Below are positions 1 through 38,767 of a stretch of DNA of 64,000 nucleotides, piece after piece (the first letter of the stretch is position 1; each line of letters begins with the position of its first letter). A program made the position numbers and the translations under genes. A model generated the notes under the pieces. It was not told the DNA's origin. It worked only from the letters and a program-made list of their open reading frames with translations, and ran no database searches. This DNA is from Mytilus galloprovincialis (lineage: Eukaryota; Mollusca; Bivalvia; Mytilida; Mytilidae), in assembly GCF_965363235.1 (NCBI RefSeq), contig NC_134847.1, positions 61,908,439 through 61,972,438 on the forward strand, given 5' to 3'.

Positions 1-726
1 CGCTTGAAGAAAAGGGGCTACAAACACAGAAATATCAAAAAAAGCTTTCAGAAAGCGGAATCAATTCCCAGGAGTGAACTATTGGAATACAAAGTTAAAA
101 AGAAAAATAAAAGGACTCCATGTGTTCTTACTTACCACCCATCTCTCAAAAACAGCTTTGGTGTCATTCGTGAGCATTGGAAATCAGTTGAAAAGAATTC
201 CAAGATTTTTCCCGAGCCTCCAATAATAGCTTTTAGGCAACCTAGTAGTCTGCGGAACCTGCTGGTGCGGGCTGAAGTGTCTGATAATAGAAGTACTTCT
301 GGAGAATGTCGTTCGTGTGAAGAAAAACGCTGAAAATGCTGCCTACAGATGCAGCATTCATCAACATTTCACAGTAAGGCAACCGAAAACAACTATAAGA
401 TATTTTGCAATGTTACCTGCAAAAGTATGAATGTTATTTACATACTAGAATGTTCGGTTTGTGGCCTCCAATATGTTGGCGAGTCAAAGCAGCCTTTCCA
501 CAAACGCCTCAATGGCCATAGGAGTGATATCTCTAAGAAGCCACTTCTCCCAGTTTCTCAGCACTTCAGACAGTCGGGTTACAAACCTGATGACTTTAAC
601 CGCATGAAAATTCTAGTGATTGAACAGAATATTCACTGGAGTGATGCCCAGCGACAGGTTCGGGAAAGCTTTTGGATAAAGGAACTTAATGTACATCATC
701 CAAACGGCATCAATAAGAAATACTAG
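1..726 (+). mobile_element. 3' end of a Penelope-like element (C-terminal GIY-YIG endonuclease)
   Basis: The frame is open from base 1 to the TAA at 724-726 except for one UGA at 331-333. The first ~110 codons resemble the linker after a PLE reverse transcriptase (SSLRNLLVRAE, then a Cys-rich ECRSC segment). The following ~125 codons form a GIY-YIG endonuclease: NVIYILECSVCGLQYVGE, HKRLNGHRSD, and a C-terminal RESFWIKELN. This order (RT, then EN at the C-terminus) is that of canonical EN+ PLEs and opposite to the element at 2,940-7,227. The RT lies left of the window. The single UGA sits before KCC, where relatives as I recall them have Cys (KRCxxC), so it may be a mutation or a recoded codon. 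Confidence 0.85.
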
Positions 727-1394: not shown

Positions 1395-1780
1395 TTTTTT
1401 ATTCTGTTTTTTTCGGAATTTTTTGTTCCCAATGCTCTTTAACTTTATACTTGTTTGACTTTCTAACTATTTTGATCTGAGCGTCACTGATTAGTCTTAT
1501 GTAGACGAAACGCGCGTCTGGCGTATCAACATTACAAGCCTGTTCCTTTCATAACTATTTAGAACACTGCTGGTGGACGTTTAGTCTCCGAGGGTATCAC
1601 CAGCCCAGTAGTCAGTACTTCGGAACTAGCATGAAAAACTGGTTTTGTGTTATTAAATTTTTGTGTTACAAAATTTCTTAAATTGTTTTAAACTAAGGAA
1701 TGTATCTCCCTCGTGTGAAGCTCTGTTTCCTTGCCTGGCTTTGGCTATAATTTTTTTTCTTTTTGGTTTCTAATTCTCTA
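1395..1780 (+). mobile_element. Hammerhead-bearing dispersed repeat (retrozyme/PLE-derived)
   Basis: Non-coding repeat of a family also present at 27.7-28.1 and 34.4-34.8 kb. It contains the hammerhead at 1481-1524, followed by a hairpin-rich stretch (GCTGGTGGACGTTT ... CACCAGC) that I know from bivalve copies. Boundaries are approximate. Confidence 0.6.
1481..1524 (+). ncRNA. Hammerhead ribozyme, one core substitution
   Basis: Stem I GCGTCA/TGGCGT (with two G-U pairs), core CTGATTA (consensus CTGATGA), stem II GTC/GAC with a 7-nt loop, GAAA, self-complementary CGCGCG as stem III, then UC and the 3' strand of stem I. The G-to-T change in the core should weaken or abolish cleavage. Confidence 0.75.
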
Positions 1781-2939
1781 TCTTTTGAATAAGCTTTGAA
1801 TTTTCATTTTTTTTTTTTTTTTGGCCTCGAGAATCACCGAAAAGACATTAATTGTCGAAATCTGCATCTGATGCAGAACAATTGATATCGTTTATGTTAT
1901 TACCTATCAATATGAATAGTTGATAGCTTTCTAAACTGGAACCTAACATATATTTAAAAATACATGCTTATTGGCGGGTCCTCAAGCATACTGGCATTAT
2001 TGGCGCCATTAGATGTCGGATTATTGCGAGCATCAAGGACTTCATAGAAAGTATCCAATTCAGAAAATTTCAAAATATTAAACTTCTTCCAGTACATGGG
2101 AAATAAGCAGCGATTAAACAAATTAAGAAAACACATCATGATATTAATATCAAACCAACACAACGTGAGCCAGGTAATAGACTAGTTTTTTTGTTTTAGC
2201 AGAAAAAGGTATGAAGTCTGCGTTATCTATATTCATGCACAACAAACAATAGTAAAATATTTCTAAAAGAAAACAAGACATTCTTCAACCTAATATTGTG
2301 AACGTTTTTTTTTTCTTTCTTTCAAATTGACATTTTGGACACCAATTGTATCACAATGTTATCTTAAGTGCCTTTTCACAAAGGAATATTTTCAAATATT
2401 TGTACTTTCTTCGGATGTAATATCAATGCACACGTACAGGAAAAAAATGTTTGCGGATGAATATCTCGAAAACGTATTCCAACAACAGCGGGGTGTACAT
2501 ATCTGTCAGACATGTATCATATTACCGCCTGTCATTAATTCATCATCCAACATAACTTGGGGGCATCCGATGTACAGTACTTCAGTACTTTTATAAAAAC
2601 AAGTTGTTCGATTGCATCAATACAAAGTATTCGTAAATATTGTACTTTTATTTAACAAGTTGTTCGTTTGCAATATATTGTACCAGACCGCAAACACATC
2701 ACCCATATTAAAACCTATGCATTTGATTCAAAGCGCAAAATCCGCCCAAAAATGTCAATGAATTAAATATATAGCACTATGAACGTTTGTATTAAAATAA
2801 ACTGACTAAAAAGTATCATCAAAATATTTACTTCAATTAATAATTCAAAATTATCAAACAAGGAAAAAAATAGGTATCATGTAAAAAAGAAAGCGGATGT
2901 TACTGTGTACTTATAAACAGTTTAAAGTAAATCAATATT
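1781..2939. other. No gene seen
   Basis: AT-rich DNA with short homopolymers; only spurious short frames. Confidence 0.6.
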
Positions 2940-3349
2940 TAAAATTGAGAATGGAAATGGGGAATGTGTCAAAGAGACAACAACCCGCCCAAATAAAAAA
3001 CAACAGCAGAGGGTCACCAACAGGTCTTCAATGTAGCGAGAAATTCCCGCACCCGGAGGCGTCCTTCAGCTGGCCCCTAAACAAATATATACTAGTCCAG
3101 TGATAATGAACGCCATACTAATTTCCAAATTGTACACAAGAAACTAAAATTAAAATAATACAAGACTAACAAAGGTCACAGGCTCCTGACTTGGGACAGG
3201 CGCAAAAATGCGGCGGGGTTAAACATGTTTGTGAGATCTCAACCCTCCCCCTATACCTCTAACCAATGTAGTAAAGTAAACGCATAACAATACGCACATT
3301 AAAATTCAGTTCAAGAGAAATCCGAGTCTGATGTCAGAAGATGTAACCA
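2940..3349 (-). repeat. Pseudo-LTR, 3' copy of the Naiad
   Basis: 410 bp, identical to 6818-7227 except for one base (position 3273). The matching interior-side edge is at 3349. Near-identity suggests a recent insertion. Confidence 0.93.
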
Positions 3350-3495
3350 AAGAAAATAAACAAAATGACAATAATACATAAATAACAACAGACTACTAGC
3401 AGTTAACTGACATGCCAGCTCCAGACTTCAACTAAACTGACTGAAAGATTATGTAACCCGTGTCATGCCAACAACTGTTTTTAGATTAAATGTGT

Positions 3496-6400
3496 TTAGT
3501 TCCGATGCAAAGACCTTATCAGTGACTCAATATTAACGCCAAAATATGCAATCTTTAATGACTTGACAACAGTATCGTAATTATATCCCTTCTTAATAAG
3601 TCTATTCAAAGGTTTTGTAAGTTTCTGAGGTGAATACTGACACCTTTGTGCTTTATAAAGAATATTACCATAAAAAATTGGATGTGAAATACCTGAACGT
3701 ATTAGAAGTCTGTATGTCTATATTTACGAATGATGTCTTTATACCGATGATAAAATTTAGTAAATGTTTTGACTAGTTTGTGATATCGAAAACCCTGGTG
3801 TAATAATTTTTCAGTAATACATAAATTTCTCTCGTTAAAATCTAAAACATTGTTACATACACGAGCGAATCGTACAAGTTGAGATATATAAACACCGTAA
3901 GATGGTGACAAGGGAACGTCACCATCTAAAAACGGATAATTAACGATAGGAAATGAAAAATCATCCCTTTTATCATAAATTTTAGTATTCAGCTTTCCAT
4001 TAGTGATATAGATATCAAGATCGAGAAAAGGGCAGTGGTCATTGTTAGTATTAGCTTTATTTAAAGTAAGTTCAACAGGATAAATTTCATTAATATACAT
4101 ACTGAAGTCGTCATTATTGAGAGCCAAAATATCATCCAAATATCTAAAAGTATTATTAAATTTGTTTATCAGATATTGTTTCGATGGGTCTTTGCTTATT
4201 TTTGTCATAAATTGTAACTCATAACAATACAAAAACAGGTCCGCAATAAGTGGTGCACAGTTAGTCCCCATTGGAATTCCGATAATCTGACGATATACGG
4301 AATCCCCAAAGCGAACAAAAATGTTATCTAGTAAAAATTCAAGGGCATATATAGTATCAAAGCATGTCCAATTAACATAGTTTTTTTGTTTATTGCTACT
4401 AAAAAATGACCTAAAAGAGTTTGAACATATATATTCACATTCTGATTTTTGAATGCCCATTTAATTAGGTGTGTGAATTTTTTCTTAATGAAAATGTGAG
4501 GCAATGTGTTATACAGGGTAGAAAAATCAAAACTCTGAACAGATTCAAAATCACCAATATAAGCATGCAATTTATCAAGTACTTCCAACGAGTTCTTGAC
4601 ACTCCAAAAGTAATTTATTCCACTATTTTCGAAGGCCTTATTTGAACAATTTATTATCAGGTTTTTAATTGTACCAAGTGTGCTGGTAAGAAGAATAGAC
4701 AATTTAGTAGTTGAACAATGGCTTGAAGACGAAATAAATCTATATTTGTAAGGGGTTTTGTGTAGCTTCGGAAGCCAATACATAGTTGGGACTTTCATTG
4801 TATTTGGCTCTGCTTGTAAAGCGGTGCCTAAAAGATTATGTTTGTTACAGATTTCGTTTTCTGAAAATGGAGTAAGTTGGAATGTTGGTGAATTGGTGAT
4901 TTCCTTTTTCAGAACCTCAATGTAAAATTTACGTCAAACAATAATAATATTATTAGCAGCTTTATCTGCCGGGACAAAAACAAATTCCATGGCTAGTTCT
5001 TTTAGTTTATGTTTGATACGAGAAATAGGTTTATTGTTGTTATTGTTTATAGTAAAATGTTCTTTAAAATGTTGAATACGTATATCAACTATCTTCATTA
5101 CTGAATTAAAAAAAGAGTCCAAAGATTTTTTGTCAGCTTTTTCCCGTTTTATCCATTTCATACAGTAAGTATGGAGTGAGTCGTGGATGATATTACGACA
5201 CTCATTCCAATTAATAATTGACGGGGGACGATATTTAGGTCCTTTACTGAGGAATGATTTTAACTCTCGGTCTTGAACGATGTTAAGATCTCCTGTTATA
5301 ACATGGGAAATGGGTCCATAAATATATTCGGAATTACTGCAATTACATGAAGTAGGTGTATTTTCACTGATATTAACATCTTTACACAATTGACTATAGT
5401 TAAACACAAATTTCCGGGTAGATTTCTTGTAAATATAACAAATAAGAGGTAGCTAAGTATTGTCAAAATATCCAGGAATTTGTTCTTTAACAGAATGGTC
5501 GTTAAATATACCGGCAATATTTACAAAATCAAAGCCTTTATTGATATACTTAATTTTAATAAAATGTTTTTTATGATCTTCAGGGCGATCAATTTTGGGA
5601 AATAATTTAGAATAACAATATGCCATAATAATTTGAACAATTTCATACTTAGGACTGCTATATGAAATTGTGTTGCAATCCTCCAAAATTTTATTTAACT
5701 TATTAACCGGTAACGAACAGAGTTTTGTTAACAGATAATGTCTGCCGTTGTTTTTTGAAATAGAAATTAGGTCCGAAATATTGGTATGATTGGCCCGAAA
5801 TTGTCTTTGATTGCGATTTGTTCTACGACCGTGAGAACGTTTTTTACGAACAGTTTTAGAAACTATATCCAAAATGTTAACGGAATTGGTTCTAGATATA
5901 TTACCAATTCCCATGATATTATCATTTAGACCGAGAGGGTAAACTGTCTGTAATTTTTTAATCCAATTTAATTCAATTATTTTCCGTGATCGTACAAACT
6001 TTGAATGCGATTCACCAGGCTGCTTATTTACTACTTCTAAAGGTTGAACTGCTAAATATTTAAAAGGATGGTTGTGCTTCTTAAGGTGTTGGTAAATGAT
6101 ACTTTTGAATTTATTGGGTCTTTTAAAACGATACAGATGTTCTTGAGTGCGTTTAGATAAATATCGTCCAGTTTCGCCTACGTACTGAATACCACACCCC
6201 GGTTTGTTTCATGTGAGTAAATAAATAATACTGTTTGTTCTTCAAGTTATATCAGTTTCAAAATTTAAAGAAAATGTGCGACCATTAAACGTGGACCTTA
6301 CCGTATTGTTGGTGGAAAGACGGGGACATGTAAGTCATTTTTTGGCATGACACTTATCGATAGAAGGGTAACCACGATTTTTATTGTTAAAAATGTTAGC

Positions 6401-6499
6401 GATGGTAGTATTTTTAGATAACCGATTCTGAAGATTGAGACGTGTGGATACCCTTTGAACAAGTTTAGTATTTAGTAATTTTCCATTTCTAAGCTTCAT
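3496..6499 (-). CDS. Naiad polyprotein: GIY-YIG endonuclease + reverse transcriptase with in-frame UGAs
   Basis: Retroelement protein that would nick target DNA (GIY-YIG) and copy element RNA (RT). From 6499 down to about 4450 one frame is kept across four UGA codons: 6335-6337 (CHAKK-UGA-LTCPRL), 6242-6244 (DIT-UGA-RTNSIIYLLT), 6209-6211 (LLT-UGA-NKPGCGIQYVG) and 4934-4936 (IIIV-UGA-RKFYIEVL). In Naiad relatives as I recall them these are Cys. Selenocysteine recoding is known for clam Naiads, so UGA = Sec is the favoured reading. The RT holds RYLDD, with a C-terminal part related to the copy at 26.7 kb. About three further disruptions make this copy unlikely to yield full protein. Confidence 0.75.
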
Positions 6500-6817: not shown

Positions 6818-7227
6818 TAAAATTGAGAATGGAAATGGGGAATGTGTCAAAGAGACAACAACCCGCCCAAATAAAAAACAACAGCAGAGGGTCACCAACA
6901 GGTCTTCAATGTAGCGAGAAATTCCCGCACCCGGAGGCGTCCTTCAGCTGGCCCCTAAACAAATATATACTAGTCCAGTGATAATGAACGCCATACTAAT
7001 TTCCAAATTGTACACAAGAAACTAAAATTAAAATAATACAAGACTAACAAAGGTCACAGGCTCCTGACTTGGGACAGGCGCAAAAATGCGGCGGGGTTAA
7101 ACATGTTTGTGAGATCTCAACCCTCCCCCTATACCTCTAACCAATGTAGTTAAGTAAACGCATAACAATACGCACATTAAAATTCAGTTCAAGAGAAATC
7201 CGAGTCTGATGTCAGAAGATGTAACCA
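6818..7227 (-). repeat. Pseudo-LTR, 5' copy of the Naiad
   Basis: Same length and direction as 2940-3349, with a single mismatch at 7151. Its outer edge (7227/7228) abuts the coding sequence of a host exon. Confidence 0.93.
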
Positions 7228-7672
7228 TTACTTCATTTCCCATAAAACTTATGCAAGTTTTAAGACCAATTGAAAATCCTATTCCGATGAATTTTGCTTC
7301 TAGGCCATCAACACCTACATATGCACCAGTATCTTGTTGCAATCCTACTTTTATACCTATAGGACCTGCTTTTCCTGATGCAGTTCCGACCCCATCAGTT
7401 GCCATTGCAGAAACTCCTGTAAAAGTTGCACCCGCATATGCTCCTGCATTTGGACCTTTTGCTTTTGCTTCGAACATTCTCCATTTTGCGTTGGCATCAC
7501 CAACACCAGCTTCAGTATACGCCCCTGCTTTAGGAATTCTTTCACTTGGTTTATTTTCCAATCCATAGGCATAAGTCCCGGATCTTGCATATGTAGAATT
7601 AGCATTCTCAGTTCCCGGTTGGTCAAAAGTGTCAACCATATCTATGAATCCACTTGGTCCTGATAATCCACA
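7228..7672 (-). pseudogene. Host exon interrupted by the Naiad: Ala/Gly-rich uncharacterised bivalve protein
   Basis: A 3' exon that starts after a splice acceptor (ttttacag, AG at 7673-7674). It reads CGLSGPSGFIDMVDTFDQPG, then an Ala/Gly-rich middle and the ending KFIGIGFSIGLKTCISFMGNEV. I recognise the composition and the FSIG..T.ISF.GNEV ending from a family of uncharacterised molluscan proteins of unknown function. The frame runs straight into the pseudo-LTR at 7227, which would add a foreign tail ending at 7184. No convincing upstream exon was found. I see no transmembrane segment. It is either a disrupted gene or a fragment that was already dead when the PLE landed. Confidence 0.55.
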
Positions 7673-7892
7673 CTGTAAAAGCTGCAATTTCAAATTCTTT
7701 GCTACATTCGGTTTTAAAACTTTTCTTTTCCAATTTTTTTATTTTATCCTAGGTATATCACTTATCACTGCAATTACCTTTTCTTATTTCGAACCAAACG
7801 CCATTATCAACTCCTAAAATTCAAAAGGAATTTTACCAAAGAGTTATTTCAAGTCATATTACTTAGTAAAAATTTACATCATGTGAACAACC

Positions 7893-22016: not shown

Positions 22017-22176
22017 TTAGTCGGCAATGTATAGTAGTTTGTTCGGAATTTTGTGAAGCTTAGGTATCCAATACAAACAAGGTAATTTGAAGACCTGTTG
22101 GTGACCTTCTGCTGTTGTCTGTTCTATGGTCTGGTTGTTGTCTTTTTGACACTTTCCCCATTTCCATTCTCAATTT
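22017..22176 (-). mobile_element. Rearranged Naiad fragment
   Basis: 22,017-22,086 (minus) encodes a PLE RT motif CLYWIPKLHKIPNK. 22,090-22,176 matches the outer 85 bp of the Naiad pseudo-LTR (ggtgaccttctgctgttgtc) in the opposite relative orientation to that seen at 2,940. Such inverted partial insertions are typical of PLEs. Confidence 0.65.
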
Positions 22177-22739
22177 TAAGGTAAGTCTTCCGATTTTCTT
22201 TAAATATAATGTTCATTGAAGCCTTGAAGGACATATGATTCGCCCAAATCTCATCCTTGTATTGATTAACCGTTTGGCGATTTTCTCTAGTATTATTTCC
22301 TCTGCTAAGATTGCCTATAGAGTCTTGAAAAGTGTCTGCATTAATTGGATTTTTGTACATTATTTTATAATTATTTCTTTTTTGCATAAAAACTCTTCAC
22401 AAGGTAACCGGTAATACAATTTTTTTTTAATAGTCTCTTTGCATCGTCCGTCTGTCAGTAAGTTGCTTAAGAGACTATTGCATAACAACTTTTACACTAT
22501 TTTTTTTCTTTTTTGTTAGCGTTTTACTTAGAAAATACAAAAATATGTGTAAAATATGTTTTAATATTAATTCACAAGACCTATACGGAACGATTATTTC
22601 TCTAATTTATTTAAGTGTCAACTCATTTTCTTAGCCTTTCACAGAACTATCTGTTTATCATAGCCAAAGCATGAACTGTTACTTCAGATTTTGACACCCA
22701 ATTTATGAGTTTGACTGTCCCTCTGGTATCTTTCGTTCC

Positions 22740-26025: not shown

Positions 26026-27423
26026 GTGAATATAGATTTATTTCGTCTTCAAGCCATTGATCCCGTGACTACTCAACTGTTTATTCTACTTTATAATACA
26101 CTTGGTACAATCAATGGCCAGGGACCGTATGCATAAAACATCTTAACTTAAGTATTCCTTAAACTTAGATTTCACCAAGAATTTCCTTAGTTAAGTAAAA
26201 AATGGTATGCCTAAACTTACTTAAGTATTCACTTAACTAATATTCACTTAACTAAGTAATACTTAAATCGGAACCTTTCTCTAGTTACCCGTTACTGCCC
26301 TTGAACATTTACCAGATACATTTCTGTTTGCTATAGAGATTCCGTATGTCGTCAATTTATCTTTATTCCAATGGAAAATACCTGTGCACTGCTTACTGCA
26401 GACATGGTTTTGTATTAATATGAGTTACAATTTATGATTAAAATCAGAAAGGACCCATCGAACCAAGAAAACAATTTAAAAACGCTTTTAGATTTTCAAT
26501 TGATATGTTGGCTCTCAATAAAGACGACTTCAATATATATCCTGCTAAGCTGAGTTTGAAAAAAAGTGATATTGACAATAAACACTGCCCTTTTCTGGAT
26601 CTTGATATCTATATCTGTAACGGAAAGCTTAATGCCTACTGTTCAGGCATTTCACATCTAATCTTCTATGGTAATATTCTTTACAGTACACAAAATTGTC
26701 GGCATAACTTTCTGAAGCTAACTAAACCTTTAAACCTTATCAGAAGGAAAATAGTTAAGATACTGTTGTCAGGTCACAAAAGATGGAATATGTTGGTATT
26801 AATATTGATTCACTCATAGGGTCTTTGCATCAGAAATAACCACATTTATTCTAAAACAAATTGTTAGTAAGATACGGGTTATGTTTTTCTCAAATATGTT
26901 ATGATGATATGATGCTAAACCCTTAACAAGATTGACAAGGCTTGATTTTCATAAGATGAAAACATAATCTTGCAATAAGTTTAATTGAGGCCTGGATCTG
27001 GCACGACAGTAACTGCTAGTAGTCCTTTAATTGTTAATTAATGTATCATTGTCATTTTGTTTAGTTTCTTTTGTTACCTCTTCTGGCATCGAACTCGGAC
27101 TCCTTTTAATCTGACATTGACAATGTGTGTTTGTTTATTCTATATTTGCTAGAGAGGTATTGATTAATTTGATCATAAAACAGACCTGTTTTATACCCGT
27201 CGAATTGTTGCGCTTGTCCTAATTCAAGAGCCTCTAGCCTTTGTAAGTCGTGTATGTTTTTTAATTTTAGTTCACTGATATGTTTTTAGTTTTAGTGTGA
27301 AACTAGTACAGATATTTGTTTAGGGGCCAGTTAAAGCCCACCTCTGGATGCTGCATTTTCTCGCTGTAATGAAGATCCATAGGTGGACTTTTGGCTATTG
27401 TCTGCTTTCATCGGGTTTCATCT
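26026..27423 (+). mobile_element. Naiad relic B
   Basis: 26,026-26,115 matches the RT block YRFISSSSH of the 2,940-7,227 element. After an unrelated insert (~26,120-26,320), 26,324-26,860 matches the region from FGDSVYRQ through GISHPIFYGNILY to the stop. 26,861-27,423 matches the 3' non-coding part and pseudo-LTR (tggatctggca, gttaggggcca-like and cttttggctattgtctgct blocks). Internally deleted and frame-broken, but it keeps an 81-nt 3' segment (26,882-26,962) that the 2,940 copy lacks. Confidence 0.8.
26899..26954 (+). promoter_or_regulatory. SECIS-like stem-loop in Naiad relic B
   Basis: Helix I TTATGA/TCATAA (26,899-26,904; 26,949-26,954); internal loop TGAT / TT; quartet strands ATGA (26,909-26,912) and TGAT (26,943-26,946); then 12 nt ending CCTT, AA at the apical loop (26,925-26,926), and AAGG closing helix II. 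The AUGA, the AA about 12 nt later and the UGAU match the layout of eukaryotic SECIS elements, which direct UGA-to-selenocysteine decoding. Helix II is short and mismatched, so this is a decayed or tentative example. Confidence 0.5.
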
Positions 27424-30879: not shown

Positions 30880-31446
30880 CTTAACGCAGTACATAGGAAA
30901 AAACACATTTATTTTATAAAATCAGTTCTTGGTATGATATAGGTTATGTTTTTCATATATTTTATAATGGTATGATGCTTGATTTTCTAAAGATGAAGAC
31001 ATAATATTTCATCAGTTTAATTGAAGCCTGGATCTGGCATGTCTGTAATTGCTTGGAGTCCTTTATTGATTTTTATATTTTTGTCTTTTTTGCTACCTTT
31101 TCTAACATCGGACTCGAACATCTTTTTATCTGATTTTTACTGTGCGTAATGATGTGTGTTTGTTTATTCCATATTGGCTAGTGATATAGGGGAGGGTTGA
31201 GATCTGACAACACACATTTTAAAATCCGTTGCTTTGTTGCGTCTGCACCAATCCAAGTGCCTCTAGTCTTTGTCAATCTTGAAAGGTTTTTTTTAGTTTT
31301 AATTCACTTATTAGTATATGTTTTTGCTTTTGGTTTAGGATTTTCTCACTGTTATGAAGACCCATTGATGGCCTTCGGCTGTTGTCTGCTTTGATTGGGT
31401 TGTTGTCTCTTTTACACATTCCCCATCTTCCTTCTGGATCTTATTT
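30880..31446 (+). mobile_element. Naiad relic C (3' non-coding end)
   Basis: Matches relic B from ggttatgtttttcatatatt through gaagcctggatctggcatgt, gggagggttgagatctgaca and ggttgttgtctcttttacac. It keeps the SECIS-like flanks (tatgatgc / ttgattttc at 30,971-30,987) but has lost the 26-nt apical part. Confidence 0.75.
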
Positions 31447-31830
31447 TTAGTTAGATTTGCAGTCAATGAAAAGCGAAATCTAAAATAGTAGTTCATTGAT
31501 TTATGTCTTTACAGTCATATTTACAAGATTTTTTTTTCTTTTGATAAAGACCGTTCCCAGCATAAGGACAAGAATACTCATGGGAAAGTATAGAAGAAAA
31601 AACAAATGAATTATAAACCTATTGGAAAAACTATGGATGGTAAGTGTATATTTTTGAATTACTTGGTTCATGTGACTTTTTCATAATTAATCTATCGTTT
31701 CGTTCCGCATATTACGTTAAAGATGTCTCTTATCTTTAAAGCTTAAGTTTTAAGTGTTAAAATATGAACGGAGATCTTGATATCAACGGTCCAATATTTA
31801 CTGTCATCGTTATTCATTTAAATGTTTATA

Positions 31831-38184: not shown

Positions 38185-38767
38185 AAAGGAGTAGGTTCAG
38201 TAAGACCCCTTTTTGGCCCTAAAATATAGAAGTTTTACAAAATTGTTTGAATGTAAACTTTTAGTTATTTTTTGGAATGTATAATGCCTGTGCTACATAA
38301 ATATTGGTTGTTTTTGGCATTACAATGCACACATATCGGGTACTTGCATCATTAAGTCATGCTAAATTACTGAAATCTTCACAATTTCAGCATTTTGATT
38401 AAATTTTAGACGGTTTCCGTCTTAAATGACAGTGGCCGCATTCGTGTTCATTCTTGATATTGAAATGTAAGTTGTGTTTAATGATAATACATAACATATA
38501 TAAAGGTCGAGGATGAACACGGATGCGGCCACTTTCATTTTTGACAAAAACTATATAAAAAGTGACAGTTTTTGGCATATTTGATAGATTTTTCATATTT
38601 AAGCTAGAATCGGAGCGTTTTTAATGAGTGAATCAGTTAAAATCTTTCACAAAAAATAATTGAATCAATTGAAATAGACATTTAAGTGTTTAAAAAGTGT
38701 CCAAAATCTTTCGTCAGATGAACTTGAATTTGAGGCCAAAACCGGCCCTTACCAGACCTACTCCTTT
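38185..38767. mobile_element. 583-bp MITE
   Basis: Left AAAGGAGTAGGTTCAGTAAG and right complement of CTTACCAGACCTACTCCTTT are inverted repeats of ~34 bp. Inside is a second inverted pair (gtggccgcattcgtgttcat near 38,432; complement near 38,513-38,534). Confidence 0.75.

What the first reader, a model, noticed from the sequence alone, without database searches (positions are those of the whole stretch)
4934..6337. Naiad retroelement with four in-frame UGAs, each at an expected cysteine position: candidate selenoprotein
The frame from about 6499 to 4450 is broken by UGA at 6335-6337, 6242-6244, 6209-6211 and 4934-4936. The contexts (KK-UGA-LTCP; T-UGA-RTNSIIYLLT-UGA-NKPGCG; IIIV-UGA-RKFY) place every one where Naiad/PLE proteins, as I recall them, carry Cys. 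Random decay would not put four UGAs at four Cys sites. Naiads of clams and spiders are known to have evolved several selenocysteines; this would extend the case to a mussel.
Basis: partly seen in the sequence, partly recalled or inferred. Interest (0 to 1): 0.9.

Follow-up and report, generated by a model that had tools for sequence, protein, structure and literature searches.

The report
Decayed retroelement with selenocysteine-site UGA codons
A dead copy of a jumping element, probably in a mussel genome, carries UGA codons where its relatives have conserved cysteines, which fits descent from an element that used selenocysteine; elements of that kind are, as far as I recall, already described in clams and spiders.

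Summary
It looks like a Naiad-type Penelope-like element: GIY-YIG-like endonuclease before the reverse transcriptase, a CxC motif between them, and a 410-bp pseudo-LTR. At the three endonuclease UGA columns relatives have Cys in 2 of 3, 3 of 3 and 3 of 3; at the reverse-transcriptase column the one Naiad-like relative covering it has Cys. Four of four UGAs on conserved Cys columns is unlikely under simple decay (2e-5 to 6e-4, depending on how many columns count). A SECIS is not shown: this copy lacks an 81-nt 3' hairpin kept by one decayed relative in the window and partly by another; that hairpin has SECIS-like spacing, but the evidence is weak. Best reading: a dead copy from a selenocysteine-encoding Naiad family, a new member of a kind recalled as known. 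Unexpected: a second, distant element (1-726) has its only internal stop, a UGA, at the same cysteine column as UGA 6337. Copies elsewhere in the genome could not be examined.

The parts
4382..6499 (-). first coding frame: endonuclease (EN), linker with CxC motif, start of reverse transcriptase (RT)
   Evidence: translation and stop list
6335..6337 (-). UGA 1 (KK-UGA-LTC), EN; Cys in 2 of 3 relatives, UGA in the third
6242..6244 (-). UGA 2 (DIT-UGA-RTN), EN; Cys in 3 of 3 relatives
6209..6211 (-). UGA 3 (YLLT-UGA-NKPGCG), EN; Cys in 3 of 3 relatives
4934..4936 (-). UGA 4 (IIIV-UGA-RKFY), RT; Cys (TGT) in L002, the one Naiad-like relative covering it
3705..4460 (-). second frame: RT core with GIPMGTNCAP and FRYLDD
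3496..3708 (-). third frame: C-terminal tail, ends in TAA
3454..3455 (-). junction at which the 81-nt hairpin stretch kept by paralogue A (26881-26961) is missing
2940..3349 (-). 3' copy of the pseudo-LTR repeat
   Evidence: 1 mismatch in 410 to 6818-7227
6818..7227 (-). 5' copy of the pseudo-LTR repeat
26029..27375 (+). paralogue A: decayed RT C-terminus and 3' end of a related element
   Evidence: 70-81% DNA identity in blocks; sequence
26879..26967 (+). hairpin of paralogue A: 10-bp outer stem around ATGA, 12 nt, AAA and TGA; inner helix decayed
   Evidence: no SECIS match in Rfam
30900..31448 (+). paralogue B: 3' end of a related element, hairpin with part of its apex missing
1..726 (+). 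second, distant Penelope-like element: end of its ORF with EN, open from the window edge to TAG 724-726 but for one UGA
   Evidence: GIY-YIG E=7.8e-8
331..333 (+). UGA of the second element, at the Cys column of UGA 1
   Evidence: Cys in L010 and L011

Best explanation
This is a dead genomic copy of a Naiad-type Penelope-like retroelement whose source lineage read four UGA codons as selenocysteine (Sec). In a live relative the host's Sec machinery would read the UGAs with the help of a SECIS hairpin in the 3' untranslated region, giving an EN-RT protein with Sec in place of Cys at three EN positions and one RT position. The EN positions lie in or beside Cys-rich, zinc-ligand-like motifs, so Sec may act as a metal ligand or redox-sensitive residue (inference). 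This copy then became, or already was, defective: TAG, two frame changes, and loss of the hairpin, perhaps by the reverse transcriptase skipping the stem (inference). Shown: UGA positions, Cys in relatives, domain order, flanking repeats, lesions, missing hairpin. Inferred: Sec decoding, a working SECIS in live copies, how the hairpin was lost, the host species.
For: UGAs at Cys columns: 2 of 3, 3 of 3, 3 of 3 EN relatives and 1 of 1 Naiad-like RT relative; where Cys, the codons are TGT or TGC, so each would need a transversion to become UGA. P for 4 of 4 on conserved columns 2e-5 to 6e-4. The flanking repeats differ at 1 of 410 sites; decay since insertion then predicts about 0.1 new stops in 706 codons (0.58 at the upper 95% limit) against 5 seen, so most came with the template, if the two repeats were alike at insertion. 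Paralogue A keeps a 3' hairpin with ATGA-12 nt-AAA-TGA inside a 10-bp stem; 13 of 1000 shuffles do as well.
Against: No other copy of this element was seen with UGA at these columns. The TAG and frame changes cannot be explained by Sec and, by the repeat argument, may also predate insertion, so the template may itself have been decaying. No SECIS match in Rfam at E<=10 for the window or for 26800-27100. Whole hairpin regions of A and B fold no better than shuffles (127 of 200 each fold at least as well). My SECIS scan gives 72 plus-strand and 56 minus-strand hits in the window, and A's hairpin ranks low (6 of 9 inner pairs). The looser core-and-stem test also fires at 3466 in the focal 3' end, with 9 of 10 stem pairs. 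In L019, a distant element, the residue at the RT column is by eye Asp, so that Cys is not universal.
Confidence: 0.8

Rival explanations
1. Ordinary decay: the family used Cys, and four substitutions changed TGC or TGT to TGA in this copy or in a defective master copy.
For: The copy is a pseudogene with a TAG and two frame changes; relatives have Cys codons; no SECIS shown.
Against: 4 of 4 UGAs on conserved Cys columns, P 2e-5 to 6e-4 under single-step decay; no TAA among five stops, P 0.03-0.04; nearly identical flanking repeats leave little time.
Confidence: 0.15
2. UGA is read in this element by another route, such as plain readthrough or insertion of Cys or Trp at UGA, with no selenium involved.
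For: No SECIS has been shown.
Against: Relatives have Cys, not Trp, at the columns. I know of no animal nuclear gene set that reads UGA as Cys (recalled). A hairpin with SECIS-like spacing is kept in a paralogue.
Confidence: 0.05

Closest known systems
Naiad Penelope-like elements, including Sec-encoding Naiads of clams and spiders (Craig et al. 2021, Mol Biol Evol 38:5005; I saw only its reference-list entry in PMC11167929; its content is recalled)
   Same: EN before RT, CxC motif between them, flanking pseudo-LTR, several UGAs at Cys positions
   Different: This copy is dead and lacks the 3' hairpin; host probably a mussel; no published Naiad sequence was compared here
Penelope-like elements with C-terminal EN (compare second element 1-726, L010, L011, L019)
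   Same: Related EN with the same Cys columns
   Different: Order of EN and RT; the RT of L019 is only distantly similar (28% identity)
Selenoprotein genes of animals
   Same: In-frame UGA at Cys columns
   Different: No SECIS in this copy, extra TAG and frame changes

Membership tests
Naiad (defining features recalled) | GIY-YIG-type EN upstream of the RT | tested here: met
   EN similar to Penelope-like ENs (E=4e-14 to L010), RT downstream on the same strand; Pfam itself does not call the focal EN
Naiad (defining features recalled) | CxC motif between EN and RT | tested here: met
   SCNCS at residues 384-388 of the frame from 6499
Naiad (defining features recalled) | C-C-H-H residues of the Penelope-like EN | tested here: met
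   columns 97, 102, 121, 138 invariant among 4 sequences, with UGA at 97 read as Cys
Naiad (defining features recalled) | pseudo-LTR / tandem arrangement | tested here: met
   410-bp flanking repeat, also in the 3' ends of A and B; term as in passages of PMC11167929
Naiad (defining features recalled) | no hammerhead ribozyme | tested here: met
   no Rfam match at E<=5 in 2900-3560
Naiad (defining features recalled) | insertion-in-fingers domain of the RT; place in the RT tree with named Naiads | not tested
   no named Naiad sequence was at hand
Selenoprotein gene | in-frame UGA at a Cys column of homologues | tested here: met
Selenoprotein gene | otherwise open reading frame | tested here: not met
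   TAG and two frame changes
Selenoprotein gene | SECIS in the 3' UTR of this copy | tested here: not met
   hairpin stretch absent; no Rfam match; one loose own-test hit at 3466
Selenoprotein gene | SECIS in the family | tested here: inconclusive
   paralogue A
Selenoprotein gene | UGA conserved among copies | not testable with these tools
   no genome held; no second copy spanning the columns in the window

The most novel reading that the evidence does not exclude
Two Penelope-like elements from far-apart clades in one genome, a Naiad and a C-terminal-EN element, both use selenocysteine at the same Cys column of the endonuclease. That would mean convergent or shared adoption of Sec across Penelope-like elements, with one EN cysteine as a favoured site.
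Probability: 0.18. Interest if true: 0.65.

Novelty: new member of a known kind. Interest (0 to 1): 0.42.

Why it matters
If right, it extends Sec-encoding retroelements to another bivalve lineage and gives a family in which UGA columns, Cys relatives and a 3' hairpin can be tabulated over many copies. If the second element's UGA is shared by other copies, Sec would not be confined to Naiads, and one EN cysteine would stand out as a favoured site.

Tried and rejected
SECIS: no Rfam match in the window, in 26800-27100 or in 2900-3560. Whole hairpin regions of A and B fold no better than shuffles. Own scan: 72 plus and 56 minus hits in the window, uninformative. Core-and-stem test: 13 of 1000 shuffles match A, but a loose hit also lies in the focal 3' end. 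In 727-1600 of the second element neither of two crude tests found a core.

Relatives: viral collection, five scans: 0 of 4 and 0 of 224 pattern matches confirmed, two scans empty, one match, L028, a chance one. Plasmids and phages, RT piece only: no match at E<=1e-3. PDB sequences, two pieces: none at E<=1. EN query in G001 alone: 0 of 1 at E<=0.001; in G001 and G058 at E<=10: 1 of 2. RT-side query: 5 of 83 family genomes at E<=0.01, of which G026-G028 (best E 0.001-0.008) were dropped as weak; 1 of 369 class genomes at E<=1e-5. Second-element query at E<=1e-5: 1 of 83 order, 0 of 398 phylum, 0 of 369 class genomes. AlphaFold model of the EN from 4 sequences: mean pLDDT 49.4, too poor to search with.

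Papers: none held with Naiad, selenocysteine and Penelope-like together, nor with Penelope, in-frame stop and selenocysteine. Craig et al. is not held. In the listed titles and abstract starts I saw none on Sec in such elements; except for these lists were capped. Of PMC10294476, PMC11167929 and PMC10941475 I saw passages only.

Full report
Observation. On the minus strand the frame from ATG 6499 holds UGA at 6337, 6244, 6211 and 4936 (first base given), as reported. The same frame also holds a TAG at 5455. Similarity to relatives leaves this frame after about 4417 and resumes in a second frame at about 4358; a third frame takes over near 3705 and ends in TAA 3498. The copy cannot make the full protein, whatever UGA means.

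What the element is. The order is EN, linker with CNC, RT with GIPMGTNCAP and FRYLDD. The EN matches Penelope-like ENs: E=4e-14 to L010 and 6e-5 to the second element of this window. Pfam does not recognise the focal EN and gives only a weak RVT_1 match for the RT (E=0.046). A 410-bp direct repeat with one mismatch lies at 7227-6818 and 3349-2940. Related sequence continues the 3' ends of two fragments at 26029-27375 and 30900-31448, so I read it as a pseudo-LTR, a term described for these elements in passages of PMC11167929. Calling the element a Naiad rests on recalled features; no named Naiad was compared.

Relatives. No genome is held for the window. A pattern scan of bacterial and archaeal genomes found one contig, in a Bathymodiolus septemdierum symbiont MAG, which I take to be host DNA. 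Its genome (G001) and an unnamed one of the same family (G058) hold further fragments. EN columns, three relatives (L010, L011, second element of the window): 6337 has Cys in 2 of 3 and UGA in 1 of 3; 6244 and 6211 have Cys in 3 of 3. These ENs are, to judge by their kin, from C-terminal-EN elements, not Naiads. RT column: L002 (Naiad-like, 42% identical) has Cys, codon TGT. In L019, a distant element, the residue is by eye Asp (sequence; BLAST puts a gap there), so that Cys is not universal. A motif search of the loci held found this RT motif in L002 only.

Is it more than decay? If UGAs arise by one substitution from the codons of this frame, 4 of 4 on any Cys codon has P 0.001-0.004; on 7 conserved columns 2e-5 to 7e-5; if 10 or 12 columns are counted as conserved, up to 3e-4 or 6e-4. 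No TAA among the five stops has P 0.03-0.04. All this was set up after seeing the UGAs. The flanking repeats differ at 1 of 410 sites; if alike at insertion, about 0.1 stops should have arisen since, 0.58 at the upper 95% limit. Five are present, so most came with the template. That holds for the TAG too, so the template may itself have been defective. Gene conversion, or a separate origin of the 5' repeat, would weaken the argument.

The SECIS question. Rfam finds none in the window. Aligning three 3' ends shows that the focal copy lacks 81 nt that A keeps at 26881-26961 and B keeps in part. In A these form a hairpin with a perfect 10-bp outer stem, ATGA, AAA twelve bases on, and TGA. In 13 of 1000 shuffles a core and stem as good appear; the criterion was set after seeing A. 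Against it: the inner helix has 6 of 9 pairs and the general scan gives 128 hits in the window; the whole regions fold no better than shuffles; a similar loose hit lies at 3466 in the focal 3' end. I count the hairpin as a lead. The loss of nearly the whole hairpin in the focal copy would fit a reverse transcriptase skipping a stem (inference).

The second element. Window 1-726 (+) is the end of a distant Penelope-like element with a GIY-YIG domain at the C-terminus (E=7.8e-8), 49% and 62% identical to L010 and L011. Its 241 codons before TAG 724 hold one stop, UGA 331-333, in CEEKR-UGA-KCC, the column of UGA 6337. If a random stop arose, it would be UGA on a Cys with P 0.06-0.09 and on this one column with P 0.006-0.009. 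No SECIS core was found in 727-1600, and both relatives have Cys. One UGA in one copy proves nothing, but the coincidence deserves a look at other copies.

Verdict. The UGA pattern is real and best explained by descent from a Sec-encoding Naiad-type family (0.8). This copy is dead. The kind is, by recall, already published for clams and spiders, so this is a new member of a known kind, with one loose end that could be new.

Noticed in passing
331-333 (+), in 1-726: Single UGA in an otherwise open end of a distant Penelope-like element, at the same Cys column as focal UGA 6337.
   Followed up: partly
1199-1250 and 1481-1524 (+): Hammerhead-ribozyme-like matches below Rfam's gathering scores (18.5 of 48.5 and 25.3 of 34 bits) downstream of the second element.
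   Followed up: partly
7184-7738 (-): A 184-codon open frame without a Pfam match runs into the 5' pseudo-LTR, which supplies its last codons and stop; perhaps a host gene end.
   Followed up: partly
22026-22179: A short RT-like stretch on the minus strand (E=0.001) abuts or overlaps a pseudo-LTR end in the opposite orientation, as in inverted Penelope-like insertions.
   Followed up: no
L001, L002, L010-L012 and other loci of G001 and G058: Prokaryote genome records, one named as a Bathymodiolus symbiont MAG, hold animal-type retroelement contigs, probably host contamination.
   Followed up: partly
38407-38559: Rfam reports a MIR161-like long inverted repeat on both strands (37.8 and 30.9 bits, gathering 90), more likely a hairpin-forming repeat than a microRNA gene.
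   Followed up: no
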